A DNA stretch of 64,000 nucleotides from Rallus limicola (taxonomy: Eukaryota; Chordata; Aves; Gruiformes; Rallidae): positions 50,913-114,912 of the forward strand of contig JAKCOZ010000602.1 in NCBI GenBank assembly GCA_022605955.1, written 5' to 3'. Shown piece after piece: positions 31,046 through 64,000 of the stretch; the stretch's first letter is position 1; every line of letters starts with the position of its first letter. Both the position numbers and the translations under genes were made by a program. The notes below the pieces were generated by a model. The model had not been told where the DNA came from and did not search any database. It saw only the letters and a program-made list of their open reading frames with translations.

Positions 31046-32809
31046 ACACACGAGCAGACCCTGTCACTTTGGCTCTCAGCCTTTTCCTTTGCCTGGAAAG
31101 AGGGAACATGCCTGGAACCTCCTACGGTGCTTTTCTCGGCCCTAGCAGACTGCAATTCAAAACATGCTAAACGTCCAGCAATAACTCCCAAAGTAAAGAA
31201 GCTAGGCCTGAAAGGCATAGCTTGTCTGAAACCTCCTAACATGACACACGAGCAGCCCCTGTCACTTTGGCTCTCAGCCTTTTCCTTTGCCTGGAAAGAG
31301 GGAACATGCCTGGAACCTCCTACGGTGCTTTTCTCGGCCCTAGCAGACTGCAGTTCAAAACATGCTAAACGTCCAGCAATAACTCCCAAAGTAAAGAAGC
31401 TAGGCCTGAAAGGCATAGCTTGTCTGAAACCTCCTAACAGGACACCCGAGCAGACCCTGTCACTTTGGCTCTCAGCCTTTTCCTTTGCCTGGAAAGAGGG
31501 AACATGCCTGGAACCTCCTACGGTGCTTTTCTCGGCCCTAGCAGACTGCAGTTCAAAACATGCTAAACGTCCAGCAATAACTCCCAAAGTAAAGAAGCTA
31601 GGCCTGAAAGGCATAGCTTGTCTGAAACCTCCTAGCAGGACACACGAGCAGACCCTGTCACTTTGGCTCTCAGCCTTTTCCTTTGCCTGGAAAGAGGGAA
31701 CATGCCTGGAACCTCCTACGGTGCTTTTCTCGGCCCTAGCAGACTGCAGTTCAAAACATGCTAAACGTCCAGCAATAACTCCCAAAGTAAAGAAGCTAGG
31801 CCTGAAAGGCATAGCTTGTCTGAAACCTCCTAACAGGACACACGAGCAGACCCTGTCGCTTTGGCTCTCAGCCTTTTCCTTTGCCTGGAAAGAGAGAACA
31901 TGCCTGGAACCTCCTACGGTGCTTTTCTCGGCCCTAGCAGACTGCAGTTCAAAACATGCTAAACGTCCAGCAATAACTCCCAAAGTAAAGAAGCTAGGCC
32001 TGAAAGGCATAGCTTGTCTGAAACCTCCTAACAGGACACACGAGCAGCCCCTGTCACTTTGGCTCTCAGCCTTTTCCTTTGCCTGGAAAGAGGGAACATG
32101 CCTGGAACCTCCTACGGTGCTTTTCTCGGCCCTAGCAGACTGCAGTTCAAAACATGCTAAACGTCCAGCAATAACTTCCAAAGTAAAGAAGCTAGGCCTG
32201 AAAGGCATAGCTTGTCTGAAACCTCCTAACAGGACACACGAGCAGCCCCTGTCACTTTGGCTCTCAGCCTTTTCCTTTGCCTGGAAAGAGGGAACATGCC
32301 TGGAACCTCCTACGGTGCTTTTCTCGGCCCTAGCAGACTGCAGTTCAAAACATGCTAAACGTCCAGCAATAACTCCCAAAGTAAAGAAGCTAGGCCTGAA
32401 AGGCATAGCTTGTCTGAAACCTCCTAACAGGACACACGAGCAGACCCTGTCACTTTGGCTCTCAGCCTTTTCCTTTGCCTGGAAAGAGGGAACATGCCTG
32501 GAACCTCCTACGGTGCTTTTCTCGGCCCTAGCAGACTGCAGTTCAAAACATGCTAAACGTCCAGCAATAACTCCCAAAGTAAAGAAGCTAGGAATGAAAG
32601 GCATAGCTTGTCTGAAACCTCCTAACAGGACACACAAGCAGACCCTGTCACTTTGGCTCTCAGCCTTTTCCTTTGCCTGGAAAGAGGGAACATGCCTGGA
32701 ACCTCCTACGGTGCTTTTCTCGGCCCTAGAAGACTGCAGTTCAAAACATGCTAAACGTCCAGCAATAACTCCCAAAGTAAAGAAGCTAGGCATGAAAGGC
32801 ATAGCTTGT
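30981..32809 (+). repeat. HOR module I: 9 monomers + 47 bp
   Basis: Exactly 1829 bp. The order is hairpin, GAAAGCTCC, GCAATTC, AACATGACAC, CCCGAG, CCTAGCAGG, GTCGCTTTGG with GAGAGAACATG, GCAGCCCC, AACTTCCAAAG (near 32174), two near-consensus copies, then AGGAATG, ACACAAGCAG, CCTAGAAGAC and AGGCATG. This is the simplest version of the late module type. Confidence 0.9.
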
Positions 32810-32874
32810 CCTGTTAGGAGGTTTCAGACAAGCTAGGCCTGAAAGGCATAGCTTGTCTGAAAGCTCCTAACAGG
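32810..32874. repeat. HOR-boundary hairpin J9, loop form B
   Basis: J7-type stem with one mismatch. Its mirror copy is J22 (63360-63423). Confidence 0.95.
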
Positions 32875-35034
32875 ACACACGAGCAGACCCTGTCACTTTG
32901 GCTCTCAGCCTTTTCCTTTGCCTGGAAAGAGGGAACATGCCTGGAACCTCCTACGGTGCTTTTCTCGGCCCTAGCAGACTGCAATTCAAAACATGCTAAA
33001 CGTCCAGCAATAACTCCCAAAGTAAAGAAGCTAGGCCTGAAAGGCATAGCTTGTCTGAAACCTCCTAACATGACACACGAGCAGCCCCTGTCACTTTGGC
33101 TCTCAGCCTTTTCCTTTGCCTGGAAAGAGGGAACATGCCTGGAACCTCCTACGGTGCTTTTCTCGGCCCTAGCAGACTGCAGTTCAAAACATGCTAAACG
33201 TCCAGCAATAACTCCCAAAGTAAAGAAGCTAGGCCTGAAAGGCATAGCTTGTCTGAAACCTCCTAACAGGACACACGAGCAGACCCTGTCACTTTGGCTC
33301 TCAGCCTTTTCCTTTGCCTGGAAAGAGGGAACATGCCTGGAACCTCCTACGGTGCTTTTCTCGGGCCTAGCAGACTGCAGTTCAAAACATGCTAAACGTC
33401 CAGCAATAACTCCCAAAGTAAAGAAGCTAGGCCTGAAAGGCATAGCTTGTCTGAAACCTCCTAACAGGACACACGAGCAGCCCTTGTCACTTTGGCTCTC
33501 AGCCTTTTCCTTTGCCTGGAAAGAGGGAACATGCCTGGAACCTCCTACGGTGCTTTTCTCGGCCCTAGCAGACTGCAGTTCAAAACATGCTAAACGTCCA
33601 GCAATAACTCCCAAAGTAAAGAAGCTAGGCATGAAAGGCATAGCTTGTCTGAAACCTCCTAACAGGACACCCGAGCAGACCCTGTCACTTTGGCTCTCAG
33701 CCTTTTCCTTTGCCTGGAAAGAGGGAACATGCCTGGAACCTCCTACGGTGCTTTTCTCGGCCCTAGCAGACTGCAGTTCAAAACATGCTAAACGTCCAGC
33801 AATAACTCCCAAAGTAAAGAAGCTAGGCCTGAAAGGCATAGCTTGTCTGAAACCTCCTAGCAGGACACACGAGCAGACCCTGTCACTTTGGCTCTCAGCC
33901 TTTTCCTTTGCCTGGAAAGAGGGAACATGCCTGGAACCTCCTACGGTGCTTTTCTCGGCCCTAGCAGACTGCAGTTCAAAACATGCTAAACGTCCAGCAA
34001 TAACTCCCAAAGTAAAGAAGCTAGGCCTGAAAGGCATAGCTTGTCTGAAACCTCCTAACAGGACACACGAGCAGACCCTGTCGCTTTGGCTCTCAGCCTT
34101 TTCCTTTGCCTGGAAAGAGAGAACATGCCTGGAACCTCCTACGGTGCTTTTCTCGGCCCTAGCAGACTGCAGTTCAAAACATGCTAAACGTCCAGCAATA
34201 ACTCCCAAAGTAAAGAAGCTAGGCCTGAAAGGCATAGCTTGTCTGAAACCTCCTAACAGGACACACGAGCAGCCCCTGTCACTTTGGCTCTCAGCCTTTT
34301 CCTTTGCCTGGAAAGAGGGAACATGCCTGGAACCTCCTACGGTGCTTTTCTCGGCCCTAGCAGACTGCAGTTCAAAACATGCTAAACGTCCAGCAATAAC
34401 TTCCAAAGTAAAGAAGCTAGGCCTGAAAGGCATAGCTTGTCTGAAACCTCCTAACAGGACACACGAGCAGCCCCTGTCACTTTGGCTCTCAGCCTTTTCC
34501 TTTGCCTGGAAAGAGGGAACATGCCTGGAACCTCCTACGGTGCTTTTCTCGGCCCTAGCAGACTGCAGTTCAAAACATGCTAAACGTCCAGCAATAACTC
34601 CCAAAGTAAAGAAGCTAGGCCTGAAAGGCATAGCTTGTCTGAAACCTCCTAACAGGACACACGAGCAGACCCTGTCACTTTGGCTCTCAGCCTTTTCCTT
34701 TGCCTGGAAAGAGGGAACATGCCTGGAACCTCCTACGGTGCTTTTCTCGGCCCTAGCAGACTGCAGTTCAAAACATGCTAAACGTCCAGCAATAACTCCC
34801 AAAGTAAAGAAGCTAGGAATGAAAGGCATAGCTTGTCTGAAACCTCCTAACAGGACACACAAGCAGACCCTGTCACTTTGGCTCTCAGCCTTTTCCTTTG
34901 CCTGGAAAGAGGGAACATGCCTGGAACCTCCTACGGTGCTTTTCTCGGCCCTAGAAGACTGCAGTTCAAAACATGCTAAACGTCCAGCAATAACTCCCAA
35001 AGTAAAGAAGCTAGGCATGAAAGGCATAGCTTGT
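32810..35034 (+). repeat. HOR module J: 11 monomers + 47 bp
   Basis: Exactly 2225 bp. It equals module I plus two monomers placed after AACATGACAC. The added part carries TCGGGCCTAG (near 33361), GCAGCCCTTG (near 33478) and an internal AGGCATG (near 33627). The rest, including AACTTCCAAAG near 34400, follows module I in the same order. Confidence 0.9.
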
Positions 35035-35099
35035 CCTGTTAGGAGGTTTCAGACAAGCTAGGCCTGAAAGGCATAGCTTGTCTGAAAGCTCCTAACAGG
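35035..35099. repeat. HOR-boundary hairpin J10, loop form B
   Basis: J7-type stem with one mismatch. Its mirror copy is J21 (61127-61191). Confidence 0.95.
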
Positions 35100-37061
35100 A
35101 CACACGAGCAGACCCTGTCACTTTGGCTCTCAGCCTTTTCCTTTGCCTGGAAAGAGGGAACATGCCTGGAACCTCCTACGGTGCTTTTCTCGGCCCTAGC
35201 AGACTGCAATTCAAAACATGCTAAACGTCCAGCAATAACTCCCAAAGTAAAGAAGCTAGGCCTGAAAGGCATAGCTTGTCTGAAACCTCCTAACATGACA
35301 CACGAGCAGCCCCTGTCACTTTGGCTCTCAGCCTTTTCCTTTGCCTGGAAAGAGGGAACATGCCTGGAACCTCCTACGGTGCTTTTCTCGGCCCTAGCAG
35401 ACTGCAGTTCAAAACATGCTAAACGTCCAGCAATAACTCCCAAAGTAAAGAAGCTAGGCCTGAAAGGCATAGCTTGTCTGAAACCTCCTAACAGGACACA
35501 CGAGCAGACCCTGTCACTTTGGCTCTCAGCCTTTTCCTTTGCCTGGAAAGAGGGAACATGCCTGGAACCTCCTACGGTGCTTTTCTCGGGCCTAGCAGAC
35601 TGCAGTTCAAAACATGCTAAACGTCCAGCAATAACTCCCAAAGTAAAGAAGCTAGGCCTGAAAGGCATAGCTTGTCTGAAACCTCCTAACAGGACACACG
35701 AGCAGCCCTTGTCACTTTGGCTCTCAGCCTTTTCCTTTGCCTGGAAAGAGGGAACATGCCTGGAACCTCCTACGGTGCTTTTCTCGGCCCTAGCAGACTG
35801 CAGTTCAAAACATGCTAAACGTCCAGCAATAACTCCCAAAGTAAAGAAGCTAGGCATGAAAGGCATAGCTTGTCTGAAACCTCCTAACATGACACACGAG
35901 CAGCCCCTGTCACTTTGGTTCTCAGCCTTTTCCTTTGCCTGGAAAGAGGGAACATGCCTGGAACCTCCTACGGTGCTTTTCTCGGCCATAGCAGACTGCA
36001 GTTCAAAACATGCTAAACATCCAGCAATAACTCCCAAAGTAAAGAAGCTAGGCCTGAAAGGCATAGCTTGTCTGAAACCTCCTAACAGGACACACGAGCA
36101 GCCCCTGTCACTTTGGCTCTCAGCCTTTTCCTTTGCCTGGAAAGAGGGAACATGCCTGGAACCTCCTACGGTGCTTTTCTCGGCCCTAGCAGACTGCAAT
36201 TCAAAACATGCTAAACGTCCAGCAATAACTCCCAAAGTAAAGAAGCTAGGCCTGAAAGGCATAGCTTGTCTGAAACCTCCTAACAGGACACACGAGCAAA
36301 CCCTTTCACTTTGGCTCTCAGCTTTTTCCTTTGCTTGGAAAGAGGGAACATGCCTGGAACCTCCTACGGTGCTTTTCTCGGCCCTAGCAGACTGCAGTTC
36401 AAAACATGCTAAACGTCCAGCAATAACTCCCAAAGTAAAGAAGCTAGGCCTGAAAGGCATAGCTTGTCTGAAACCTCCTAACAGGACACACGAGCAGCCC
36501 CTGTCACTTTGGCTCTCAGCCTTTTCCTTTGCCTGGAAAGAGGGAACATGCCTGGAACCTCCTACGGTGCTTTTCTCGGCCCTAGCAGACTGCAGTTCAA
36601 AACATGCTAAACGTCCAGCAATAACTCCCAAAGTAAAGAAGCTAGGCCTGAAAGGCATAGCTTGTCTGAAACCTCCTAACAGGACACACGAGCAGCCCCT
36701 GTCACTTTGGCTCTCAGCCTTTTCCTTTGCCTGGAAAGAGGGAACATGCCTGGAACCTCCTACGGTGCTTTTCTCGGCCCTAGCAGACTGCAGTTCAAAA
36801 CATGCTAAACGTCCAGCAATAACTCCCAAAGTAAAGAAGCTAGGAATGAAAGGCATAGCTTGTCTGAAACCTCCTAACAGGACACACAAGCAGACCCTGT
36901 CACTTTGGCTCTCAGCCTTTTCCTTTGCCTGGAAAGAGGGAACATGCCTGGAACCTCCTACGGTGCTTTTCTCGGCCCTAGAAGACTGCAGTTCAAAACA
37001 TGCTAAACGTCCAGCAATAACTCCCAAAGTAAAGAAGCTAGGCATGAAAGGCATAGCTTGT
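35035..37061 (+). repeat. HOR module K: 10 monomers + 47 bp, mosaic of J and H
   Basis: Exactly 2027 bp. The 5' monomers match module J (GAAAGCTCC, GCAATTC, AACATGACAC, TCGGGCCTAG, GCAGCCCTTG, AGGCATG). From about 35885 they match module H instead: AACATGACAC/TTCTC, GGCCATAGC with AAACATCC, GCAATTC, then the GAGCAAACCCTTTC/CTTTTTCC monomer near 36295. It ends with the usual AGGAATG to AGGCATG series. Confidence 0.88.
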
Positions 37062-37126
37062 CCTGTTAGGAGGTTTCAGACAAGCTAGGCCTGAAAGGCA
37101 TAGCTTGTCTGAAAGCTCCTAACAGG
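37062..37126. repeat. HOR-boundary hairpin J11, loop form B
   Basis: J7-type stem with one mismatch. Its mirror copy is J20 (59104-59168). Confidence 0.95.
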
Positions 37127-37420
37127 ACACACGAGCAGACCCTGTCACTTTGGCTCTCAGCCTTTTCCTTTGCCTGGAAAGAGGGAACATGCCTGGAACC
37201 TCCTACGGTGCTTTTCTCGGCCCTAGCAGACTGCAATTCAAAACATGCTAAACGTCCAGCAATAACTCCCAAAGTAAAGAAGCTAGGCCTGAAAGGCATA
37301 GCTTGTCTGAAACCTCCTAACATGACACACGAGCAGCCCCTGTCACTTTGGCTCTCAGCCTTTTCCTTTGCCTGGAAAGAGGGAACATGCCTGGAACCTC
37401 CTACGGTGCTTTTCTCGGCC

Positions 37421-37520
37421 CTAGCAACTGCAGTTCAAAACATGCTAAACGTCCAGCAATAACTCCCAAAGTAAAGAAGCTAGGCCTGAAAGGCATAGCT
37501 TGTCTGAAACCTCCGAGCAG
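37421..37520 (+). other. 14-bp loss inside module L
   Basis: CTAGCAACTG (37421-37430) lacks one G, and CCTCCGAGCAG (near 37510-37520) lacks 13 bases that normally include TAACAGGACACAC. It is the only deletion longer than one base that I found in the clean part of the array. It reappears at 58711-58720 and 58799-58810, so it marks the same molecule in both arms. Confidence 0.93.
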
Positions 37521-39074
37521 ACCCTGTCACTTTGGCTCTCAGCCTTTTCCTTTGCCTGGAAAGAGGGAACATGCCTGGAACCTCCTACGGTGCTTTTCTC
37601 GGCCCTAGCAGACTGCAGTTCAAAACATGCTAAACGTCCAGCAATAACTCCCAAAGTAAAGAAGCTAGGCCTGAAAGGCATAGCTTGTCTGAAACCTCCT
37701 AGCAGGACACACGAGCAGACCCTGTCACTTTGGCTCTCAGCCTTTTCCTTTGCCTGGAAAGAGGGAACATGCCTGGAACCTCCTACGGTGCTTTTCTCGG
37801 CCCTAGCAGACTGCAGTTCAAAACATGCTAAACGTCCAGCAATAACTCCCAAAGTAAAGAAGCTAGGCCTGAAAGGCATAGCTTGTCTGAAACCTCCTAA
37901 CAGGACACACGAGCAGACCCTGTCGCTTTGGCTCTCAGCCTTTTCCTTTGCCTGGAAAGAGAGAACATGCCTGGAACCTCCTACGGTGCTTTTCTCGGCC
38001 CTAGCAGACTGCAGTTCAAAACATGCTAAACGTCCAGCAATAACTCCCAAAGTAAAGAAGCTAGGCCTGAAAGGCATAGCTTGTCTGAAACCTCCTAACA
38101 GGACACACGAGCAGACCCTGTCACTTTGGCTCTCAGCCTTTTCCTTTGCCTGGAAAGAGGGAACATGCCTGGAACCTCCTACGGTGCTTTTCTCGGCCCT
38201 AGCAGACTGCAGTTCAAAACATGCTAAACGTCCAGCAATAACTCCCAAAGTAAAGAAGCTAGGCCTGAAAGGCATAGCTTGTCTGAAACCTCCTAACAGG
38301 ACACACGAGCAGCCCTTGTCACTTTGGCTCTCAGCCTTTTCCTTTGCCTGGAAAGAGGGAACATGCCTGGAACCTCCTACGGTGCTTTTCTCGGCCCTAG
38401 CAGACTGCAGTTCAAAACATGCTAAACGTCCAGCAATAACTCCCAAAGTAAAGAAGCTAGGCCTGAAAGGCATAGCTTGTCTGAAACCTCCTAACAGGAC
38501 ACACGAGCAGCCCCTGTCACTTTGGCTCTCAGCCTTTTCCTTTGCCTGGAAAGAGGGAACATGCCTGGAACCTCCTACGGTGCTTTTCTCGGCCCTAGCA
38601 GACTGCAGTTCAAAACATGCTAAACGTCCAGCAATAACTCCCAAAGTAAAGAAGCTAGGCCTGAAAGGCATAGCTTGTCTGAAACCTCCTAACAGGACAC
38701 ACGAGCAGACCCTGTCACTTTGGCTCTCAGCCTTTTCCTTTGCCTGGAAAGAGGGAACATGCCTGGAACCTCCTACGGTGCTTTTCTCGGCCCTAGCAGA
38801 CTGCAGTTCAAAACATGCTAAACGTCCAGCAATAACTCCCAAAGTAAAGAAGCTAGGAATGAAAGGCATAGCTTGTCTGAAACCTCCTAACAGGACACAC
38901 AAGCAGACCCTGTCACTTTGGCTCTCAGCCTTTTCCTTTGCCTGGAAAGAGGGAACATGCCTGGAACCTCCTACGGTGCTTTTCTCAGCCCTAGAAGACT
39001 GCAGTTCAAAACATGCTAAACGTCCAGCAATAACTCCCAAAGTAAAGAAGCTAGGCATGAAAGGCATAGCTTGT

Positions 39075-39139
39075 CCTGTTAGGAGGTTTCAGACAAGCTA
39101 GGCCTGAAAGGCATAGCTTGTCTGAAAGCTCCTAACAGG
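39075..39139. repeat. HOR-boundary hairpin J12, loop form B
   Basis: J7-type stem with one mismatch. Its mirror copy is J19 (57089-57152). Confidence 0.95.
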
Positions 39140-40903
39140 ACACACGAGCAGACCCTGTCACTTTGGCTCTCAGCCTTTTCCTTTGCCTGGAAAGAGGGAA
39201 CATGCCTGGAACCTCTAACGGTGCTTTTCTCGGCCCTAGCAGACTGCAATTCAAAACATGCTAAACGTCCAGCAATAACTCCCAAAGTAAAGAAGCTAGG
39301 CCTGAAAGGCATAGCTTGTCTGAAACCTCCTAACATGACACACGAGCAGCCCCTGTCACTTTGGCTCTCAGCCTTTTCCTTTGCCTGGAAAGAGGGAACA
39401 TGCCTGGAACCTCCTACGGTGCTTTTCTCGGCCCTAGCAGACTGCAGTTCAAAACATGCTAAACGTCCAGCAATAACTCCCAAAGTAAAGAAGCTAGGCC
39501 TGAAAGGCATAGCTTGTCTGAAACCTCCTAACAGGACACCCGAGAAGACCCTGTCACTTTGGCTCTCAGCCTTTTCCTTTGCCTGGAAAGAGGGAACATG
39601 CCTGGAACCTCCTACGGTGCTTTTCTCGGCCCTAGCAGACTGCAGTTCAAAACATGCTAAACGTCCAGCAATAACTCCCAAAGTAAAGAAGCTAGGCCTG
39701 AAAGGCATAGCTTGTCTGAAACCTCCTAGCAGGACACACGAGCAGACCCTGTCACTTTGGCTCTCAGCCTTTTCCTTTGCCTGGAAAGAGGAAACATGCC
39801 TGGAACCTCCTACGGTGCTTTTCTCGGCCCTAGCAGACTGCAGTTCAAAACATGCTAAACGTCCAGCAATAACTCCCAAAGTAAAGAAGCTAGGCCTGAA
39901 AGGCATAGCTTGTCTGAAACCTCCTAACAGGACACACGAGCAGACCCTGTCGCTTTGGCTCTCAGCCTTTTCCTTTGCCTGGAAAGAGAGAACATGCCTG
40001 GAACCTCCTACGGTGCTTTTCTCGGCCCTAGCAGACTGCAGTTCAAAACATGCTAAACGTCCAGCAATAACTCCCAAAGTAAAGAAGCTAGGCCTGAAAG
40101 GCATAGCTTGTCTGAAACCTCCTAACAGGACACACGAGCAGACCCTGTCACTTTGGCTCTCAGCCTTTTCCTTTGCCTGGAAAGAGGGAACATGCCTGGA
40201 ACCTCCTACGGTGCTTTTCTCGGCCCTAGCAGACTGCAGTTCAAAACATGCTAAACGTCCAGCAATAACTCCCAAAGTAAAGAAGCTAGGCCTGAAAGGC
40301 ATAGCTTGTCTGAAACCTCCTAACAGGACACACGAGCAGCCCTTGTCACTTTGGCTCTCAGCCTTTTCCTTTGCCTGGAAAGAGGGAACATGCCTGGAAC
40401 CTCCTACGGTGCTTTTCTCGGCCCTAGCAGACTGCAGTTCAAAACATGCTAAACGTCCAGCAATAACTCCCAAAGTAAAGAAGCTAGGCCTGAAAGGCAT
40501 AGCTTGTCTGAAACCTCCTAACAGGACACACGAGCAGCCCCTGTCACTTTGGCTCTCAGCCTTTTCCTTTGCCTGGAAAGAGGGAACATGCCTGGAACCT
40601 CCTACGGTGCTTTTCTCGGCCCTAGCAGACTGCAGTTCAAAACATGCTAAACGTCCAGCAATAACTCCCAAAGTAAAGAAGCTAGGAATGAAAGGCATAG
40701 CTTGTCTGAAACCTCCTAACAGGACACACAAGCAGACCCTGTCACTTTGGCTCTCAGCCTTTTCCTTTGCCTGGAAAGAGGGAACATGCCTGGAACCTCC
40801 TACGGTGCTTTTCTCGGCCCTAGAAGACTGCAGTTCAAAACATGCTAAACGTCCAGCAATAACTCCCAAAGTAAAGAAGCTAGGCATGAAAGGCATAGCT
40901 TGT
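39075..40903 (+). repeat. HOR module M: 9 monomers + 47 bp
   Basis: Exactly 1829 bp with the order of module I. Private changes are ACCTCTAACG (39211-39220), CCCGAGAAG (39539-39547) and GAGGAAACATG (near 39789). GCAGCCCTTG replaces the AACTTCCAAAG stretch of module I. Confidence 0.9.
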
Positions 40904-40968
40904 CCTGTTAGGAGGTTTCAGACAAGCTAGGCCTGAAAGGCATAGCTTGTCTGAAAGCTCCTAACAGG
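40904..40968. repeat. HOR-boundary hairpin J13, loop form B
   Basis: J7-type stem with one mismatch. Its mirror copy is J18 (55260-55323). Confidence 0.95.
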
Positions 40969-43529
40969 ACACACGAGCAGACCCTGTCACTTTGGCTCTC
41001 AGCCTTTTCCTTTGCCTGGAAAGAGGGAACATGCCTGGAACCTCCTACGGTGCTTTTCTCGGCCCTAGCAGACTGCAATTCAAAACATGCTAAACGTCCA
41101 GCAATAACTCCCAAAGTAAAGAAGCTAGGCCTGAAAGGCATAGCTTGTCTGAAACCTCCTAACAGGACACACGAGCAGCCCCTGTCACTTTGGCTCTCAG
41201 CCTTTTCCTTTGCCTGGAAAGAGGGAACATGCCTGGAACCTCCTACGGTGCTTTTCTCGGCCCTAGCAGACTGCAGTTCAAAACATGCTAAACGTCCAGC
41301 AATAACTCCCAAAGTAAAGAAGCTAGGCCTGAAAGGCATAGCTTGTCTGAAACCTCCTAACAGGACACCCGAGCAGACCCTGTCACTTTGGCTCTCAGCC
41401 TTTTCCTTTGCCTGGAAAGAGGGAACATGCCTGGAACCTCCTACGGTGCTTTTCTCGGCCCTAGCAGACTGCAGTTCAAAACATGCTAAACGTCCAGCAA
41501 TAACTCCCAAAGTAAAGAAGCTAGGCCTGAAAGGCATAGCTTGTCTGAAACCTCCTAGCAGGACACACGAGCAGACCCTGTCACTTTGGCTCTCAGCCTT
41601 TTCCTTTGCCTGGAAAGAGGGAACATGCCTGGAACCTCCTACGGTGCTTTTCTCGGCCCTAGCAGTCTGCAGTTCAAAACATGCTAAACGTCCAGCAATA
41701 ACTCCCAAAGTAAAGAAGCTAGGCCTGAAAGGCATAGCTTGTCTGAAACCTCCTAACAGGACACACGAGCAGACCCTGTCGCTTTGGCTCTCAGCCTTTT
41801 CCTTTGCCTGGAAAGAGAGAACATGCCTGGAACCTCCTACGGTGCTTTTCTCGGCCCTAGCAGACTGCAGTTCAAAACATGCTAAACGTCCAGCAATAAC
41901 TCCCAAAGTAAAGAAGCTAGGCCTGAAAGGCATAGCTTGTCTGAAAGCTCCTAACAGGACACACGAGCAGACCCTGTCACTTTGGCTCTCAGCCTTTTCC
42001 TTTGCCTGGAAAGAGGGAACATGCCTGGAACCTCCTACGGTGCTTTTCTCGGCCCTAGCAGACTGCAATTCAAAACATGCTAAACGTCCAGCAATAACTC
42101 CCAAAGTAAAGAAGCTAGGCCTGAAAGGCATAGCTTGTCTGAAACCTCCTAGCAGGACACACGAGCAGACCCTGTCACTTTGGCTCTCAGCCTTTTCCTT
42201 TGCCTGGAAAGAGGGAACATGCCTGGAACCTCCTACGGTGCTTTTCTCGGCCCTAGCAGACTGCAGTTCAAAACATTCTAAACGTCCAGCAATAACTCCC
42301 AAAGTAAAGAAGCTAGGCCTGAAAGGCATAGCTTGTCTGAAACCTCCTAACAGGACACACGAGCAGACCCTGTCGCTTTGGCTCTCAGCCTTTTCCTTTG
42401 CCTGGAAAGAGAGAACATGCCTGGAACCTCCTACGGTGCTTTTCTCGGCCCTAGCAGACTGCAGTTCAAAACATGCTAAACGTCCAGCAATAACTCCCAA
42501 AGTAAAGAAGCTAGGCCTGAAAGGCATAGCTTGTCTGAAACCTCCTAACAGGACACACGAGCAGACCCTGTCACTTTGGCTCTCAGCCTTTTCCTTTGCC
42601 TGGAAAGAGGGAACATGCCTGGAACCTCCTACGGTGCTTTTCTCGGCCCTAGCAGACTGCAGTTCAAAACATGCTAAACGTCCAGCAATAACTCCCAAAG
42701 TAAAGAAGCTAGGCCTGAAAGGCATAGCTTGTCTGAAACCTCCTAACAGGACACACGAGCAGCCCTTGTCACTTTGGCTCTCAGCCTTTTCCTTTGCCTG
42801 GAAAGAGGGAACATGCCTGGAACCTCCTACGGTGCTTTTCTCGGCCCTAGCAGACTGCAGTTCAAAACATGCTAAACGTCCAGCAATAACTCCCAAAGTA
42901 AAGAAGCTAGGCCTGAAAGGCATAGCTTGTCTGAAACCTCCTAACAGGACACACGAGCAGCCCCTGTCACTTTGGCTCTCAGCCTTTTCCTTTGCCTGGA
43001 AAGAGGGGAACATGCCTGGAACCTCCTACGGTGCTTTTTCTCGGCCCTAGCAGACTGCAGTTCAAAACATGCTAAAACGTCCAGCAATAACTCCCAAAGT
43101 AAAGAAGCTAGGCCTGAAAGGCATAGCTTGTCTGAAACCTCCTAACAGGACACACGAGCAGCCCCTGTCACTTTGGCTCTCAGCCTTTTCCTTTGCCTGG
43201 AAAGAGGGAACATGCCTGGAACCTCCTACGGTGCTTTTCTCGGCCCCTAGCAGACTGCAGTTCAAAACATGCTAAACGTCCAGCAATAACTCCCAAAGTA
43301 AAGAAGCTAGGAATGAAAGGCATAGCTTGTCTGAAACCTCCTAACAGGACACACAAGCAGGACCCTGTCACTTTGCTCTCAGCCTTTTCCTTTGCCTGGA
43401 AAGAGGGAACATGCCTGGAAACCTCCTACGGTGCTTTTCTCGGCCCTAGAAGACTGCAGTTCAAAACATGCTAAACGTCCAGCAATAACTCCCAAAGTAA
43501 AGAAGCTAGGCATGAAAGGCATAGCTTGT
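40904..43529 (+). repeat. HOR module N: 13 monomers + 52 bp, with an internal restart
   Basis: 2626 bp, 5 over 13x198+47; the extra bases are 1-base insertions after 43000. The start series GAAAGCTCC, GCAATTC, CCTAGCAGG, GAGAGAACATG occurs twice, from 40954 and again from 41944, the second time without a hairpin. Private substitutions are GCAGTCTGC (near 41663) and AACATTCTAAAC (near 42273). Confidence 0.9.
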
Positions 43530-43594
43530 CCTGTTAGGAGGTTTCAGACAAGCTAGGCCTGAAAGGCATAGCTTGTCTGAAACCTCCTAACAGG
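43530..43594. repeat. HOR-boundary hairpin J14, loop form B
   Basis: The right arm has GAAACCTCC, so the stem is perfect again, unlike its neighbours J7-J13 and J15. Its mirror copy J17 keeps this state. Confidence 0.95.
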
Positions 43595-47346: not shown

Positions 47347-47411
47347 CCTGTTAGGAGGTTTCAGACAAGCTAGGCCTGAAAGGCATAGCTTGTCTGAAAG
47401 CTCCTAACAGG
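47347..47411. repeat. HOR-boundary hairpin J15, loop form B
   Basis: J7-type stem with one mismatch. It lies 761 bp before the turn point; its mirror J16 lies 765 bp after. Confidence 0.95.
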
Positions 47412-48107: not shown

Positions 48108-48127
48108 TGCTAGGGCCCGAGAAAAGC
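48090..48127. other. Turn point of the palindrome (orientation switch)
   Basis: GGCCCTAGC (48099-48107), one T (48108), then GCTAGGGCC (48109-48117). The symmetry continues outward, broken first by one extra C at 48118. No adapter, spacer, transposon end or unique sequence lies at the switch. A spacer of one base between 16-kb arms would be very unstable in a living chromosome, which favours a fold-back read or assembly artefact. Confidence 0.93.
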
Positions 48128-52701: not shown

Positions 52702-55323
52702 ACAAGCTATGCCTTTCATGCCTAGCTTCTTTACTTTGGGAGTTATTGCTGGACGTTTAGCATGTTTTGAACTGCAGTCTTCTAGGGCCGAGAAAAGCAC
52801 CGTAGGAGGTTCCAGGCATGTTCCCTCTTTCCAGGCAAAGGAAAAGGCTGAGAGCCAAAGTGACAGGGTCTGCTTGTGTGTCCTGTTAGGAGGTTTCAGA
52901 CAAGCTATGCCTTTCATTCCTAGCTTCTTTACTTTGGGAGTTATTGCTGGACGTTTAGCATGTTTTGAACTGCAGTCTGCTAGGGCCGAGAAAGCACCGT
53001 AGGAGGTTCCAGGCATGTTCCCTCTTTCCAGGCAAAGGAAAAGGCTGAGAGCCAAAGTGACAGTGGGCTGCTCGTGTGTCCTGTTAGGAGGTTTCAGACA
53101 AGCTATGCCTTTCAGGCCTAGCTTCTTTACTTGGGAGTTATTGCTGGACGTTTAGCATGTTTTGAACTGCAGTCTGCTAGGGCCGAGAAAAGCACCGTAG
53201 GAGGTTCCAGGGCATGTCCCTCTTTCCAGGCAAAGGAAAAGGCTGAGAGCCAAGTGACAGGGGCTGCTCGTGTGTCCTGTTAGGAGGTTTCAGACAAGCT
53301 ATGCCTTTCAGGCCTAGCTTCTTTACTTTGGGAGTTATTGCTGGACGTTTAGCATGTTTTGAACTGCAGTCTGCTTAGGGCCGAGAAAAAGCACCGTAGG
53401 AGGTTCCAGGCATGTTCCCTCTTTCCAGGCAAAGGAAAAGGCTGAGAGCCAAAGTGACAAGGGCTGCTCGTGTGTCCTGTTAGGAGGTTTCAGACAAGCT
53501 ATGCCTTTCAGGCCTAGCTTCTTTACTTTGGGAGTTATTGCTGGACGTTTAGCATGTTTTGAACTGCAGTCTGCTAGGGCCGAGAAAAGCACCGTAGGAG
53601 GTTCCAGGCATGTTCCCTCTTTCCAGGCAAAGGAAAAGGCTGAGAGCCAAAGTGACAGGTCTGCTCGTGTGTCCTGTTAGGAGGTTTCAGACAAGCTATG
53701 CCTTTCAGGCCTAGCTTCTTTACTTTGGGAGTTATTGCTGGACGTTTAGCATGTTTTGAACTGCAGTCTGCTAGGGCCGAGAAAAGCACCGTAGGAGGTT
53801 CCAGGCATGTTCTCTCTTTCCAGGCAAAGGAAAAGGCTGAGAGCCAAAGCGACAGGGTCTGCTCGTGTGTCCTGTTAGGAGGTTTCAGACAAGCTATGCC
53901 TTTCAGGCCTAGCTTCTTTACTTTGGGAGTTATTGCTGGACGTTTAGAATGTTTTGAACTGCAGTCTGCTAGGCCGAGAAAAGCACCGTAGGAGGTTCCA
54001 GGCATGTTCCCTCTTTCCAGGCAAAGGAAAAGGCTGAGAGCCAAAGTGACTGGGTCTGCTCCGTGTGTCCTGCTAGGAGGTTTCAGACAAGCTATGCCTT
54101 TCAGGCCTAGCTTCTTTACTTTGGGAGTTATTGCTGGACGTTTTAGCATGTTTTGAATTGCAGTCTGCTAGGGCCGAGAAAAGCACCGTAGGAGGTTCCA
54201 GGCATGTTCCCTCTTTCCAGGCAAAGGAAAAGGCTGAGAGCCAAGTGACAGGGTCTGCTCGTGTGTCCTGTTAGGAGCTTTCAGACAAGCTATGCCTTTC
54301 AGGCCTAGCATCTTTACTTTGGGAGTTATTGCTGGACGTTTAGCATGTTTTGAACTGCAGTCTGCTAGGGCCGAGAAAAGCACCGTAGGAGGTTCCAGGC
54401 ATGTTCTCTCTTTCCAGGCAAAGGAAAAGGCTGAGAGCCAAAGCGACAGGGTCTGCTCGTGTGTCCTGTTAGGAGGTTTCAGACAAGCTATGCCTTTCAG
54501 GGCCTAGCTTCTTTACTTTGGGAGTTATTGCTGGACGTTTAGCATGTTTTGAACTGCAGACTGCTAGGGCCGAGAAAAGCACCGTAGGAGGTTCCAGGCA
54601 TGTTCCCTCTTTCCAGGCAAAGGAAAAGGCTGAGAGCCAAAGTGACAGGGTCTGCTCGTGTGTCCTGCTAGGAGGTTTCAGACAAGCTATGCCTTTCAGG
54701 CCTAGCTTCTTTACTTTGGGAGTTATTGCTGGACGTTTAGCATGTTTTGAACTGCAGTCTGCTAGGGCCGAGAAAAGCACCGTAGGAGGTTCCAGGCATG
54801 TTCCCTCTTTCCAGGCAAAGAAAAGGCTGAGAGCCAAAGTGACAGGGTCTGCTCGGGTGTCCTGTTAGGAGGTTTCAGACAAGCTATGGCCTTTCAGGCC
54901 TAGCTTCTTTACTTTGGGAGTTATTGCTGGACGTTTAGCATGTTTTGAACTGCAGTCTGCTAGGGCCGAGAAAAGCACCGTAGGAGGGTTCCAGGGCATG
55001 TTCCCTCTTTCCAGGCAAAGGAAAAGGCTGAGAGCCAAAGTGACAGGGGCTGCTCGTGTGTCCTGTTAGGAGGTTTCAGTCAAGCTATGCCTTTCAGGCC
55101 TAGCTTCTTTACTTTGGGAGTTATTGCTGGACGTTTAGCATGTTTTGAATTGCAGTCTGCTAGGGCCGAGAAAAGCACCGTAGGAGGTTCCAGGCATGTT
55201 CCCTCTTTCCAGGCAAAGGAAAAGGCTGAGAGCCAAAGTGACAGGGTCTGCTCGTGTGTCCTGTTAGGAGCTTTCAGACAAGCTATGCCTTTCAGGCCTA
55301 GCTTGTCTGAAACCTCTAACAGG
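52702..55323 (-). repeat. Mirror of module N
   Basis: 2622 bp against 2626 bp. The private AACATTCT (complement at 53943-53954) and GCAGTCTGC (complement near 54555) changes and the internal restart (GGAGCTTTCAG near 54275) are all present. Confidence 0.92.
55260..55323. repeat. Hairpin J18, mirror of J13
   Basis: Carries the GGAGCTTTC mismatch; one base is missing in AACCTCTAAC. Confidence 0.92.
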
Positions 55324-57152
55324 ACAAGCTATGCCTTTCATGCCTAGCTTCTTTACTTTGGGAGTTATTGCTGGACGTTTAGCATGTTTTGAACTGCAGT
55401 CTTCTAGGGCCGAGAAAAGCACCGTAGGAGGTTCCAGGCATGTTCCCTCTTTCCAGGCAAAGGAAAAGGCTGAGAGCCAAAGTGACAGGGTCTGCTTGTG
55501 TGTCCTGTTAGGAGGTTTCAGACAAGCTATGCCTTTCATTCCTAGCTTCTTTACTTTGGGAGTTATTGCTGGACGTTTATGCATGTTTTGAACTGCAGTC
55601 TGCTAGGGCCGAGAAAAGCACGTAGGAGGTTCCAGGCATGTTCCCTCTTTCCAGGCAAAGGAAAAGGCTGAGAGCCAAAGTGACAGGGGCTGCTCGTGTG
55701 TCCTGTTAGGAGGTTTCAGACAAGCTATGCCTTTCAGGCCTAGCTTCTTTACTTTGGGAGTTATTGCTGGACGTTTAGCATGTTTTGAACTGCAGTCTGC
55801 TAGGGCCGAAGAAAGCACCGTAGGAGGTTCCAGGCATGTTCCCTCTTTCCAGGCAAAGGAAAAGGCTGAGAGCCAAAGTGACAAGGGCTGCTCGTGTGTC
55901 CTGTTAGGAGGTTTCAGACAAGCTATGCTTTCAGGCCTAGCTTCTTTACTTTGGGAGTTATTGCTGGACGTTTAGCATGTTTTGAACTGCAGTCTGCTAG
56001 GGCCGAGAAAAGCACCGTAGGAGGTTCCAGGCATGTTCCCTCTTTCCAGGCAAAGGAAAAGGCTGAGAGCCAAAGTGACAGGGTCTGCTCGTGTGTCCTG
56101 TTAGGAGGTTTCAGACAAGCTATGCCTTCAGGCCTAGCTTCTTTACTTTGGGGAGTTATTGCTGACGTTTAGCATGTTTTGAACTGCAGTCTGCTAGGGC
56201 CGAGAAAAGCACCGTAGGAGGTTCCAGGCATGTTCTCTCTTTCCAGGCAAAGGAAAAGGCTGAGAGCCAAAGCGACAGGGTCTGCTCGGTGTGTCCTGTT
56301 AGGAGGTTTCAGACAAGCTATGCCTTTCAGGCCTAGCTTCTTTACTTTGGGAGTTATTGCTGGACGTTTAGCATGTTTTGAACTGCAGTCTGCTAGGGCC
56401 GAGAAAAGCACCGTAGGAGGTTCCAGGCATGTTTCCTCTTTCCAGGCAAGGGAAAAGGCTGAGAGCCAAAGTGACAGGGGTCTGCTCGTGTGTCCTGCTA
56501 GGAGGTTTCAGACAAGCTATGCCTTTCAGGCCTAGCTTCTTTACTTTGGGAGTTATTGCTGGACGTTTAGCATGTTTTGAACTGCAGTCTGCTAGGGCCG
56601 AGAAAAAGCACCGTAGGAGGTTCCAGGCATGTTCCCTCTTTCCAGGCAAAGGAAAAGGCTGAGAGCCAAAGTGACAGGGTCTTCTCGGGGTGTCCTGTTA
56701 GGAGGTTTCAGACAAGCTATGCCTTTCAGGCCTAGCTTCTTTACTTTGGGAGTTATTGCTGGACGTTTAGCATGTTTTGAACTGCAGTCTGCTAGGGCGA
56801 GAAAAGCACCGTAGGAGGTTCCAGGCATGTTCCCTCTTTCCAGGCAAAGGAAAAGCTGAGAGCCAAAGTGACAGGGGCTGCTCGTGTGTCATGTTAGGAG
56901 GTTTCAGACAAGCTATGCCTTTCAGGCCTAGCTTCTTTACTTTGGGAGTTATTGCTGGACGTTTAGCATGTTTTGAATTGCAGTCTGCTAGGGCCGAGAA
57001 AAGCACCGTTAGAGGTTCCAGGCATGTTCCCTCTTTCCAGGCAAAGGAAAAAGGCTGAGAGCCAAAGTGACAGGGTCTGCTCGTGTGTCCTGTTAGGAGC
57101 TTTCAGACAAGCTATGCCTTTCAGGCTAGCTTGTCTGAAACCTCCTAACAGG
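55324..57152 (-). repeat. Mirror of module M
   Basis: 1829 bp in both copies. The private ACCTCTAACG change is seen as CGTTAGAGGT (57007-57016), GAGGAAACATG as CATGTTTCCTC (near 56429), and CCCGAGAAG near 56682. Confidence 0.92.
57089..57152. repeat. Hairpin J19, mirror of J12
   Basis: Carries the GGAGCTTTC mismatch; the loop has lost one C (TTTCAGGCTAG). Confidence 0.92.
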
Positions 57153-59168
57153 ACAAGCTATGCCTTTCATGCCTAGCTTCTTTACTTTGGGAGTTATTGC
57201 TGGACGTTTAGCATGTTTTGAACTGCAGTCTTCTAGGGCTGAGAAAAGCACCGTAGGAGGTTCCAGGCATGTTCCCTCTTTCCAGGCAAAGGAAAAGGCT
57301 GAGAGCCAAAGTGACAGGGTCTGCTTGTGTGTCCTGTTAGGAGGTTTCAGACAAGCTATGCCTTTCATTCCTAGCTTCTTTACTTTGGGAGTTATTGCTG
57401 GACGTTTAGCATGTTTTGAACTGCAGTCTGCTAGGGCCGAGAAAAGCACCGTAGGAGGTTCCAGGCATGTTCCCTCTTTCCAGGCAAAGGAAAAGGCTGA
57501 GAGCCAAAGTGACAGGGTCTGCTCGTGTGTCCTGTTAGGAGAGGTTTCAGACAAGCTATGCCTTTCAGGCCTAGCTTCTTTTACTTGGGAGTTATTGCTG
57601 GACGTTTAGCATGTTTTGAACTGCAGTCTGCTAGGGCCGAGAAAAGCACCGTAGGAGGTTCAGGCATGTTCCCTCTTTCCAGGCAAAGGAAAAGGCTGAG
57701 AGCCAAAGTGACAGGGGCTGCTCGTGTGTCCTGTTAGGAGGTTTCAGACAAGCTATGCCTTTCAGGCCTAGCTTCTTTACTTTGGGAGTTATTGCTGGAC
57801 GTTTAGCATGTTTGAACTGCAGTCTGCTAGGCCGAGAAAAGCACCGTAGGAGGTTCCAGGCATGTTCCCTCTTTCCAGGCAAAGGAAAAGGCTGAGAGCC
57901 AAAGTGACAAGGGGCTGCTCGTGTGTCCTGTTAGGAGGTTTCAGGACAAGCTATGCCTTTCAGGCCTAGCTTCTTACTTTGGGAGTTATTGCTGGACGTT
58001 TAGCATGTTTTGAACTGCAGTCCTGCTAGGGCCGAGAAAAGCACCGTAGGAGGTTCCAGGCATGTTCCCTCTTTCCAGGCAAAGGAAAAGGCTGAGAGCC
58101 AAAGTGACAGGGTCTGCTCGTGTGTCCTGTTAGGAGGTTTCAGACAAGCTATGCCTTTCAGGCCTAGCTTCTTTACTTTGGGAGTTATTGCTGGACGTTT
58201 AGCATGTTTTGAACTGCAGTCTGCTAGGGCCGAGAAAAGCACCGTAGGAGGTTCCAGGCATGTTCTCTCTTTCCAGGCAAAGGAAAAGGCTGAGAGCCAA
58301 AGCGACAGGGTCTGCTCGTGTGTCCTGTTAGGAGGTTTCAGACAAGCTATGCCTTTCAGGCCTAGCTTCTTTACTTTGGGAGTTATTGCTGGACGTTTAG
58401 CATGTTTTGAACTGCAGTCTGCTAGGGCCGAGAAAAGCACCGTAGGAGGTTCCAGGCATGTTCCCTCTTTCCAGGCAAAGGAAAAGGCTGAGAGCCAAAG
58501 TGACCAGGGTCTGCTCGTGTGTCCTGCTAGGAGGTTTCAGACAAGCTATGCCTTTCAGGCCTAGCTTCTTTACTTTGGGAGTTATTGCTGGACGTTTAGC
58601 ATGTTTTGAAACTGCAGTCTGCTAGGGCCGAGAAAAGCACCGTAGGAGGTTCCAGGCATGTTCCCTCTTTCCAGGCAAAGGAAAAGGCTGAGAGCCAAAG
58701 TGACAGGGTCTGCTCGGAGGTTTCAGACAAGCTATGCCTTCAGGCCTAGCTTCTTTACTTTGGGAGTTATTGCTGGACGTTTAGCATGTTTTTGAACTGC
58801 AGTTGCTAGGGCCCGAGAAAAGCACCGTAGGAGGTTCCAGGCATGTTCCCTCTTTCCAGGCAAAGGAAAAGGCTGAGAGCCAAAGTGACAGGGGCTGCTC
58901 GTGTGTCATGTTAGGAGGTTTCAGACAAGCTATGCCTTCAGGCCTAGCTTCTTTACTTTGGGAGTTATTGCTGGACGTTTAGCATGTTTTGAATTGCAGT
59001 CTGCTAGGGCCGAGAAAAGCACCGTAGGAGGTTCCAGGCATGTTCCCTCTTTCCAGGCAAAGGAAAAGGCTGAGAGCCAAAGTGACAGGGTCTGCTCGTG
59101 TGTCCTGTTAGGAGCTTTCAGACAAGCTATGCCTTTCAGGCCTAGCTTGTCTGAAACCTCCTAACAGG
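57153..59168 (-). repeat. Mirror of module L, sharing its 14-bp loss
   Basis: 2016 bp against 2013 bp. CTGCTCGGAGG (58710-58720) and GCAGTTGCTAGG (near 58799) reproduce the 13-base and 1-base deletions of module L. The private CTCAGCC change is seen as GGGCTGAG (57237-57244). Confidence 0.93.
59104..59168. repeat. Hairpin J20, mirror of J11
   Basis: Full 65-bp mirror copy of J11 with the stem mismatch. Confidence 0.93.
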
Positions 59169-61191
59169 ACAAGCTATGCCTTTCATGCCTAGCTTCTTTA
59201 CTTTGGAGTTATTGCTGGACGTTTAGCATGTTTTGAACTGCAGTCTTCTAGGGCCGAGAAAAGCACCGTAGGAGGTTCCAGGCATGTTCCCTCTTCCAGG
59301 CAAAGGAAAAGGCTGAGAGCCAAAGTGACAGGGTCTGCTTGTGTGTCCTGTTAGGAGGTTTCAGACAAGCTATGCCTTTCATTCCTAGCTTCTTTACTTT
59401 GGGAGTTATTGCTGGACGTTTAGCATGTTTTGAACTGCAGTCTGCTAGGGCCGAGAAAAGCACCGTAGGAGGTTCCAGGCATGTTCCCTCTTTCCAGGCA
59501 AAGGAAAAGGCTGAGAGCCAAAGTGACAGGGGCTGCTCGTGTGTCCTGTTAGGAGGTTTCAGACAAGCTATGCCTTTCAGGCCTAGCTTCTTTACTTTGG
59601 GAGTTATTGCTGGACGTTTAGCATGTTTTGAACTGCAGTCTGCTAGGGCCGAGAAAAGCACCGTAGGAGGTTCCAGGCATGTTCCCCTCTTTCCAGGCAA
59701 AGGAAAAGGCTGAGAGCCAAAGTGACAGGGGCTGCTCGTTGTGTCCTGTTAGGAGGTTTCAGACAAGCTATGCCTTTCAGGCCTAGCTTCTTTACTTTGG
59801 GAGTTATTGCTGGACGTTTAGCATGTTTGAACTGCAGTCTGCTAGGGCCGAGAAAAGCACCGTAGGAGGTTCCAGGCATGTTCCCTCTTTCAAGCAAAGG
59901 AAAAAAGCTGAGAGCCAAAGTGAAAGGGTTTGCTCGTGTGTCCTGTTAGGAGGTTTCAGACAAGCTATGCCTTTCAGGCCTAGCTTCTTTACTTTGGGAG
60001 TTATTGCTGGGACGTTTAGCATGTTTTGAATTGCAGTCTGCTAGGGCCGAGAAAAGCACCGTAGAGGTTCCAGGCATGTTCCCTCTTTCCAGGCAAAGGA
60101 AAAGGCTGAGAGCCAAAGTGACAGGGGCTGCTCGTGTGTCCTGTTAGGAGGTTTCAGACAAGCTATGCCTTTCAGGCCTAGCTTCTTTACTTTGGGAGTT
60201 ATTGCTGGATGTTTAGCATGTTTTGAACTGCAGTCTGCTATGGCCGAGAAAAGCACCGTAGGAGGTTCCAGGCATGTTCCCTCTTTCCAGGCAAAGGAAA
60301 AGGCTGAGAACCAAAGTGACAGGGGCTGCTCGTGTGTCATGTTAGGAGGTTTCAGACAAGCTATGCCTTTCATGCCTAGCTTCTTTACTTTGGGAGTTAT
60401 TGCTGGACGTTTAGCATGTTTTGAACTGCAGTCTGCTAGGGCCGAGAAAAGCACCGTAGGAGGTTCCAGGCCATGTTCCTCTTTCCAGGCAAAGGAAAAG
60501 GCTGAGAGCCAAAGTGACAAGGGCTGCTCGTGTGTCCTGTTAGGAGGTTTCAGACAAGCTATGCCTTTCAGGCCTAGCTTCTTTACTTTGGGAGTTATTG
60601 CTGGACGTTTAGCATGTTTTGAACTGCAGTCTGCTAGGCCGAGAAAAGCACCGTAGGAGGTTCCAGGCATGTTCCCTCTTTCAGGCAAAGGAAAAGGCTG
60701 AGAGCCAAAGTGACAGGGTCTGCTCGTGTGTCCTGTTAGGAGGTTTCAGACAAGCTATGCCTTTCAGGCCTAGCTCTTTACTTTGGGAGTTATTGCTGGA
60801 CGTTTTAGCATGTTTTGAACTGCAGTCTGCTAGGGCCGAGAAAAGCACCGTAGGAGGTTCCAGCATGTTCCCTCTTTCCAGGCAAAGGAAAAGGCTGAGA
60901 GCCAAAGTGACAGGGGCTGCTCGTGTGTCATGTTAGGAGGTTTCAGACAAGCTATGCCTTTCAGGCCTAGCTTCTTTACTTTGGGAGTTATTGCTGGACG
61001 TTTAGCATGTTTTGAATTGCAGTCTGCTAGGGCCGAGAAAAGCACCGTAGGAGGTTCCAGGCATGTTCCCTCTTTCCAGGCAAAGGAAAAGGCTGAGAGC
61101 CAAAGTGACAGGGTCTGCTCGTGTGTCCTGTTAGGAGCTTTCAGACAAGCTATGCCTTTCAGGCCTAGCTTGTCTGAAACCTCCTAACAGG
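59169..61191 (-). repeat. Mirror of module K
   Basis: 2023 bp against 2027 bp. The divergent GAGCAAACCC monomer (near 59920), AAACATCC (GGATGTTTAGC near 60207) and GGCCATAGC (CTATGGCC near 60237) appear in reversed order. Confidence 0.92.
61127..61191. repeat. Hairpin J21, mirror of J10
   Basis: Full 65-bp mirror copy of J10 with the stem mismatch. Confidence 0.93.
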
Positions 61192-63423
61192 ACAAGCTAT
61201 GCCTTTCATGCCTAGCTTCTTTACTTTGGGAGTTATTGCTGGACGTTTAGCATGTTTTGAACTGCAGTCTTCTAGGGCCGAGAAAAGCACCGTAAGGAGG
61301 TTCCAGGCATGTTCCCCTCTTTCCAGGCAAAGGAAAAGGCTGAGAGCAAAGTGACAGGGTCTGCTTGTGTGTCCTGTTAGGAGGTTTCAGACAAGCTATG
61401 CCTTTCATTCCTAGCTTCTTTACTTTGGAGTTATTGCTGGACGTTTAGCATGTTTTGAACTGCAGTCTGCTAGGGCCGAGAAAAGCACCGTAGGAGGTTC
61501 CAGGCATGTTCCCTCTTTCCAGGCAAAGGAAAAGGCTGAGAGCCAAAGTGACAGGGTCTGCTCGTGTGGTCCTGTTAGGAGGTTTCAGACAAGCTATGCC
61601 TTTCAGGCCTAGCTTCTTTACTTTGGGAGTTATTGCTGGACGTTTAGCATGTTTTGAACTGCAGTCTGCTAGGGCCCGAGAAAAGCAACCGTAGGAGGTT
61701 CCAGGCATGTTCCCTCTTTCCAGGCAAAGGAAAAAGGCTGAGAGCCAAAGTGACAGGGGCTGCTCGGTGTGTCCTGTTAGGAGGTTTCAGACAAGCTATG
61801 CCTTTCAGGCCTAGCCTTCTTTACTTTGGAAGTTATTGCTGGACGTTTAGCATGTTTTGAACTGCAGTCTGCTAGGGCCGAGAAAAGCACCGTAGGAGGT
61901 TCCAGGCATGTTCCCTCTTTCCAGGCAAAGGAAAAGGCTGAGAGCCAAAGTGACAGGGGCTGCTCGTGTGTCCTGTTAGGAGGTTTCAGACAAGCTATGC
62001 CTTTCAGGCCTAGCTTCTTTACTTTGGGAGTTATTGCTGGACGTTTAGCATGTTTTGAACTGCAGTCTGCTAGGGCCGAGAAAAGCACCGTAGGAGGTTC
62101 CAGGCATGTTCTCTCTTTCCAGGCAAAGGAAAAGGCTGAGAGCCAAAGCGACAGGGTCTGCTCGTGTGTCCTGTTAGGAGGTTTCAGACAAGCTATGCCT
62201 TTCAGGCCTAGCTTCTTTACTTTGGGAGTTATTGCTGGACGTTTAGCATGTTTTGAACTGCAGTCTGCTAGGGCCGAGAAAAGCACCGTAGGAGGTTCCA
62301 GGCATGTTCCCTCTTTCCAGGCAAAGGAAAAGGCTGAGAGCCAAAGTGACAGGGTCTGCTCGTGTGTCCTGCTAGGAGGTTTCAGACAAGCTATGCCTTT
62401 CAGGCCTAGCTTCTTTACTTTGGGAGTTATTGCTGGACGTTTAGCATGTTTTGAACTGCAGTCTGCTAGGGCCGAGAAAAGCACCGTAGGAGGTTCCAGG
62501 CATGTTCCCTCTTTCCAGGCAAAGGAAAAGGCTGAGAGCCAAAGTGACAGGGTCTGCTCGGGTGTCCTGTTAGGAGGTTTCAGACAAGCTATGCCTTTCA
62601 TGCCTAGCTTCTTTACTTTGGGAGTTATTGCTGGACGTTTAGCATGTTTTGAACTGCAGTCTGCTGAGGGCCGAGAAAAGCACCGTAGGAGGTTCCAGGC
62701 ATGTTCCCTCTTTCCAGGCAAAGGAAAAGGCTGAGAGCCAAAGTGACAAGGGCTGCTCGTGTGTCCTGTTAGGAGGTTTCAGACAAGCTATGCCTTTCAG
62801 GCCTAGCTTCTTTACTTTGGGAGTTATTGCTGGACGTTTAGCATGTTTTGAACTGCAGTCTGCTAGGCCCGAGAAAAGCACCGTAGGAGGTTCCAGGCAT
62901 GTTCCCTCTTTCCAGGCAAAGGAAAAGGCTGAGAGCCAAAGTGACAGGGTCTGCTCGTGTGTCCTGTTAGGAGGTTTCAGACCAAGCTATGCCTTTCAGG
63001 CCTAGCTTCTTTACTTTGGGAGTTATTGCTGGACGTTTAGCATGTTTTGAACTGCAGTCTGCTAGGGCCGAGAAAAGCACCGTAGGAGGTTCCAGGCATG
63101 TTCCCTCTTTCCAGGCAAAGGAAAAGGCTGAGAGCCAAAGTGACAGGGGCTGCTCGTGTGTCATGTTAGGAGGTTTCAGACAAGCTATGCCTTTCAGGCC
63201 TAGCTTCTTTACTTTGGGAGTTATTGCTGGACGTTTAGCATGTTTTGAATTGCAGTCTGCTAGGCCGAGAAAAGCACCGTAGGAGGTTCCAGGCATGTTC
63301 CCTCTTTCCAGGCAAAGGAAAAGGCTGAGAGCCAAAGTGACAGGGTCTGCTCGGTGTGTCCTGTTAGGAGCTTTCAGACAAGCTATGCCTTTCAGGCCTA
63401 GCTTGTCTGAAACTCCTAACAGG
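61192..63423 (-). repeat. Mirror of module J
   Basis: 2232 bp against 2225 bp. The complement of AACTTCCAAAG is seen near 61827 (CTTTGGAAGTT), GAGAGAACATG near 62107, and the internal AGGCATG near 62598. Confidence 0.92.
63360..63423. repeat. Hairpin J22, mirror of J9
   Basis: Mirror copy of J9 with one C missing (GAAACTCC). Confidence 0.92.
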
Positions 63424-64000
63424 ACAAGCTATGCCTTTCATGCCTAGCTTCTTTACTTTGGGAGTTATTGCTGGACGTTTAGCATGTTTTGAACTGCAGT
63501 CTTCTAGGGCCGAGAAAAGCACCGTAGGAGGTTCCAGGCATGTTCCCTCTTTCCAGGCAAAGGAAAAGGCTGAGAGCCAAAGTGACAGGGTCTGCTTGTG
63601 TGTCCTGTTAGGAGGTTTCAGACAAGCTATGCCTTTCATTCCTAGCTTCTTTACTTTGGGAGTTATTGCTGGACGTTTAGCATGTTTTGAACTGCAGTCT
63701 GCTAGGGCCGAGAAAAGCACCGTAGGAGGTTCCAGGCATGTTCCCTCTTTCCAGGCAAAGGAAAAGGCTGAGAGCCAAAGTGACAGGGTCTGCTCGTGTG
63801 TCCTGTTAGGAGGTTTCAGACAAGCTATGCCTTTCAGGCCTAGCTTCTTTACTTTGGGAGTTATTGTCTGGACGTTTAGCATGTTTTGAACTGCAGTCTG
63901 CTAGGGCCGAGAAAAGCACCGTAGGAGGTTCCAGGCATGTTCCCTCTTTCCAGGCAAAGGAAAAGGCTGAGAGCCAAAGTGACAGGGCTGCTCGTGTGTC
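63424..64000 (-). repeat. Mirror of module I (partial, cut by window end)
   Basis: 577 bp that mirror 32233-32809: CTTCTAGGG (CCTAGAAG), TGCTTGTG (ACACAAGC) and CATTCCTAG (AGGAATG) occur in the expected order. The mirror symmetry has not ended at the window edge. Confidence 0.9.

What the first reader, a model, noticed from the sequence alone, without database searches (positions are those of the whole stretch)
32233..64000. Palindrome with arms of at least 15.9 kb and a 1-bp spacer
48109-64000 repeats 32233-48107 in reverse complement, with matching hairpin spacing, private substitutions and a private 14-bp loss. Even the monomer next to the turn shares its private ACATCC change, so this is not two different array segments meeting head to head. 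Fold-back reads (template followed by complement) produce exactly this. If real, it would be a very recent inverted duplication.
Basis: partly seen in the sequence, partly recalled or inferred. Interest (0 to 1): 0.75.

Follow-up and report, generated by a model that had tools for sequence, protein, structure and literature searches.

The report
Fold-back read artefact in satellite array
The huge mirror-image repeat is truly in this sequence, but its right half carries the scattered one-letter mistakes of an uncorrected sequencing read, so it is most likely a technical fold-back artefact in a satellite array rather than a real chromosome feature.

Summary
32233-48107 (15,875 b) is mirrored by 48109-64000 (15,892 b) around a single T at 48108. 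The mirror runs to the window edge, so the true arm length is unknown. The window is a 198-bp satellite array. All 7 left-arm hairpin junctions are mirrored, and the right arm shares 130 of 133 left-arm substitutions.

The new evidence is how the arms differ: 157 differences, of which 146 are gaps (140 of one base) and 11 are substitutions. Judged against array 1-32000, 130 are faults of the right arm, 19 of the left, and 8 are ties. All 27 non-right cases lie at or beyond 43008. The outer left arm (32233-43004) has none, against 83 in its mirror image. So consensus-quality sequence ends near 43.0 kb, and everything right of the turn is of raw-read quality.

A real, very recent inverted duplication supported by very few reads is not excluded. 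Reads, depth, contig length and species could not be examined; the genome search did not complete in 13 tries.

The parts
32233..48107 (+). left arm of the palindrome: 198-bp satellite monomers in + orientation
48108..48108 (.). turn point: single unpaired T between CCCTAGC and GCTAGGG
48109..64000 (-). right arm: reverse complement of the left arm with about 8 one-sided faults per kb; runs to the window edge
   Evidence: 130 faults assigned to the right arm
1..43000 (+). clean part of the array: outside the hairpin junctions no uncompensated indel against the cyclic consensus except the 1-bp and 13-bp losses near 37426 and 37510
43005..48107 (+). inner left arm, reduced quality: 19 left-arm faults plus 8 undecided differences in 5.1 kb

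Best explanation
A fold-back long read was built into the contig. One sequenced molecule gave a strand of the satellite array up to 48107 and then its own complement back from 48108. Because the array had little or no other coverage past about 43.0 kb, the assembler followed that read and wrote its complement out as new sequence, left uncorrected. Shown: the perfect mirror, the near absence of substitutions, the error-like one-base gaps concentrated in the right arm, and the sharp quality step at about 43.0 kb. Inferred: that the cause is one artefactual molecule, and that depth falls there.
For: Of 157 arm differences, 146 are gaps (140 single-base) and 11 are substitutions. 130 are right-arm faults (69 insertions, 53 deletions, 8 substitutions), 19 left, 8 ties. 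The outer left arm has 0 faults against 83 in its mirror; at the inner left-arm rate, zero in 10.8 kb would have Poisson probability about 4e-18. Clean array 1-43000 has no uncompensated indel outside junctions except one 1-bp and one 13-bp loss. Those two, and a 1-bp gain near 44501, are shared by both arms, so true variants are copied and only error-like ones differ. 21-mers absent from 1-32000: 0 to 6.4% per kb bin at 32001-43000, 7.5 to 13% at 43001-48000, 4.1 to 31.7% beyond; leave-out controls 0 to 7.2%. Two right-arm bins (62001 at 4.1%; 52001 at 7.5%) lie within or next to the control range. Fold-back reads are published: about 0.55-0.6% of ONT genomic reads, fewer than half of flagged reads with more than 11 bp between the two alignments, and said to tangle assembly graphs (PMC12870357: passages; Discussion). 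Inverted-repeat chimeras are 0.18-7.33% of reads in ligation libraries (PMC13141652: passages).
Against: No read, depth or contig-end data were seen. In the same 5.1 kb the inner left arm has 19 faults against 47 in the right arm (3.7 against 9.2 per kb, p 0.0008), so a single read of even quality does not explain both. Loss of accuracy after the turn is published for nanopore, but there the second part is also shorter (PMC7229812: passages), whereas here it is 17 b longer. The same paper saw the quality loss at real inverted duplications, so poor quality after the turn does not by itself prove an artefact. One paper saw virtually no fold-backs in PacBio HiFi.
Confidence: 0.85

Rival explanations
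1. A real and very recent inverted duplication in the array (for example sister-chromatid fusion at a broken end, or a fold-back repair event), perhaps present in only some cells, lying where few reads reached and so left uncorrected.
For: The arms share all true variants tested, with a 1-base junction. Nanopore reads lose accuracy after the turn of genuine inverted duplications too (PMC7229812, passages).
Against: Reads from a real locus would cross it from both sides and correct both arms; here 130 of 149 assignable faults are in one arm. No difference stands out as post-duplication change: of 11 substitutions, 8 are right-arm, 1 left-arm and 2 ties, all inside the low-quality stretches.
Confidence: 0.11
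2. Palindrome made before sequencing by whole-genome amplification, where the polymerase switches onto its own product.
For: 40-50% of reads in amplified Arabidopsis PacBio data held palindromes, against 0.5% unamplified (PMC6218980, passages).
Against: No sign of amplification can be read from this window, and several such palindromes would be expected; this window shows one turn.
Confidence: 0.03
3. Two different segments of the array truly meet head to head.
For: The monomers are so alike that single 600-b pieces often match elsewhere as well.
Against: 7 of 7 hairpin spacings, 130 of 133 substitutions and three small indels are shared in register.
Confidence: 0.01

Closest known systems
Fold-back (inverted-repeat) artefact reads in long-read sequencing (PMC12870357, PMC13141652)
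   Same: Near-perfect palindrome, almost no bases at the turn, no adapter-like insert, error-like differences only.
   Different: Seen here in an assembled contig, not in a read; symmetry of a single read could not be measured.
Quality loss of nanopore reads after an inverted duplication (PMC7229812)
   Same: The arm after the turn is the poorer one.
   Different: There the second part is shorter from missed bases; here it is 17 b longer, and the platform is unknown.
Real inverted duplications of chromosomes, such as those from breakage-fusion-bridge cycles (recalled)
   Same: Large identical arms with a tiny spacer.
   Different: They should be supported by many reads and both arms corrected alike; the opposite pattern is seen.

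Membership tests
Fold-back read artefact | strand followed directly by its own complement | tested here: met
   arms 32233-48107 and 48109-64000, one base between
Fold-back read artefact | differences between arms are sequencing errors, not biological variants | tested here: met
   140 of 157 differences are single-base gaps; 130 of 133 left-arm substitutions are shared
Fold-back read artefact | seen in one molecule, or only in symmetric molecules | not testable with these tools
   no raw reads held
Fold-back read artefact | second arm lacks independent coverage | tested here: inconclusive
   right-arm fault rate 7.7-9.2 per kb against none in 32233-43004 is indirect; depth not seen
Real inverted duplication | both arms equally supported and corrected | tested here: not met
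   130 right-arm against 19 left-arm faults
Real inverted duplication | independent reads or maps span the turn | not testable with these tools
   none held

The most novel reading that the evidence does not exclude
A satellite array broke at 48108 in the sampled tissue and its two sister copies fused, giving a genuine, brand-new giant palindrome captured before any mutation could separate its arms.
Probability: 0.08. Interest if true: 0.5.

Novelty: not a real feature. Interest (0 to 1): 0.12.

Why it matters
Such contig tails inflate satellite arrays and mimic breakage-fusion events. The one-sided error test used here (assign each arm difference to the arm that departs from the rest of the array) needs only the assembled sequence, so it can flag fold-back tails in repeats where reads are not at hand. 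If the palindrome were real, it would catch satellite inversion at its birth.

Tried and rejected
Exact 30-base and 23-base satellite patterns in viral contigs and genome contigs: 0 matches. Rfam at gathering thresholds: 0 matches. Paper searches with satellite fragments (0 papers) and with '198 bp' satellite terms (1 listing, Vaccinium, not opened) did not identify the species. Paper searches returned no papers; one search listed two that were not opened; on inversions in satellite arrays gave a listing only.

Turn at a natural short inverted repeat: rejected. The monomer's 4-bp repeat with a 1-b spacer lies about 2 bp from the turn, not at it.

Platform from the error profile: left open. Insertions slightly exceed deletions and substitutions are few, which I recall as more PacBio-like, while published fold-back rates favour nanopore.

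First-pass fault assignment with 12-base flanks only gave 121 right, 16 left, 20 undecided; shorter flanks for the undecided ones gave 130, 19, 8.

Full report
What is there. The window is one 198-bp satellite array. Up to 48107 the monomers lie on the + strand, after it on the - strand. Self-comparison finds one dominant inverted match, 32233-64000, and global alignment gives arms 32233-48107 (15,875 b) and 48109-64000 (15,892 b) around T48108. The right arm is cut by the window edge.

Same segment, not two segments. Single 600-b pieces of the right arm often fit other places as well as their mirror (26 pieces), because monomers are so alike. The long pairing is nevertheless unique among the matches listed: 11 mismatches over 15.9 kb, against 73 over 6.1 kb for the next listed inverted match. 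All 7 hairpin junctions are mirrored in the tandem-repeat boundaries (one left position), although an exact probe recovered only 5 on the right. The right arm shares 130 of 133 left-arm substitutions; the left shares 128 of 136 right-arm ones.

How the arms differ. There are 157 differences: 146 gaps, 140 of them one base, and 11 substitutions. Each was assigned to the arm whose local sequence is the rarer in array 1-32000. With 12-base flanks the result was 121 right, 16 left, 20 undecided; with shorter flanks for the undecided, 130 right, 19 left, 8 ties (recounted). All 27 left or tied cases lie at 43008-47855 of the left arm. In 32233-43004 there are 83 differences, all right-arm faults; in 43005-48107 there are 47 right, 19 left and 8 ties.

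Background quality. Against a cyclic consensus, 1-43000 has, outside 80 b around each junction, 12 compensated gap pairs and only two uncompensated events, the 1-bp and 13-bp losses; one junction insert (near 3376) is one base short. From 43001 to 48107 there are 26 gap events, two of them compensated pairs, leaving 22 uncompensated. The share of 21-mers unseen in 1-32000 rises in the same two steps, with two right-arm bins within or near the control range.

Reading. Substitution-poor, single-base, roughly evenly spread faults (mean 8.3, variance 11.8 per kb over 15 bins) are sequencing errors. Their one-sidedness says the right arm was never corrected by other reads. Together with a one-base turn this is what a fold-back read gives when it is the only sequence to extend a contig. 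At the turn the T is the complement of the A that follows CCCTAGC in the normal monomer, as if one strand ended one base short of the other; this is read from the sequence and was not tested further.

What does not fit neatly. The inner left arm is better than its mirror (19 against 47 faults, p 0.0008). Either a second partial read helps there, or quality dropped after the turn as published for nanopore (PMC7229812, passages). But that paper reports a shorter second part, and here it is longer by 17 b; it also reports the effect at real inverted duplications, so this feature alone cannot separate artefact from reality.

Literature seen. PMC12870357 (passages; Discussion section), PMC13141652 (passages), PMC7229812 (passages), PMC6218980 (passages). 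They show that fold-back reads are common enough, often without any bases between the halves, and can tangle assemblies.

Limits. The verdict rests on the sequence alone.

Noticed in passing
window 1551, 3380, 5604, 7433, 9064, 26535, 27968, 30985, 32814, 35039, 37066, 39079, 40908, 43534, 47351: 15 junctions in the + half carry a 47-bp insert (46 at one) that is partly an inverted copy of the neighbouring monomer piece, making a strong hairpin (one folded: -43 kcal/mol, z -12). Looks like an old template-switch event amplified with the array at spacings of 198n+47.
   Followed up: partly
window 9080-26531: A 17.5-kb run without any hairpin junction, while junctions elsewhere recur every 1.4 to 3.8 kb.
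   Followed up: no
window 9064-26397 (- strand) and matching + frames: The 198-bp unit is 66 codons and its consensus is open in one frame on each strand, so long stop-free frames up to 5777 codons appear; they end at junctions and where indels begin. Probably a by-product of period and chance; not tested as protein.
   Followed up: partly
window 12304, 13690, 16066, 20620: A monomer variant recurs at multiples of 198 bp (7, 12 and 23 units), hinting at a higher-order pattern.
   Followed up: no
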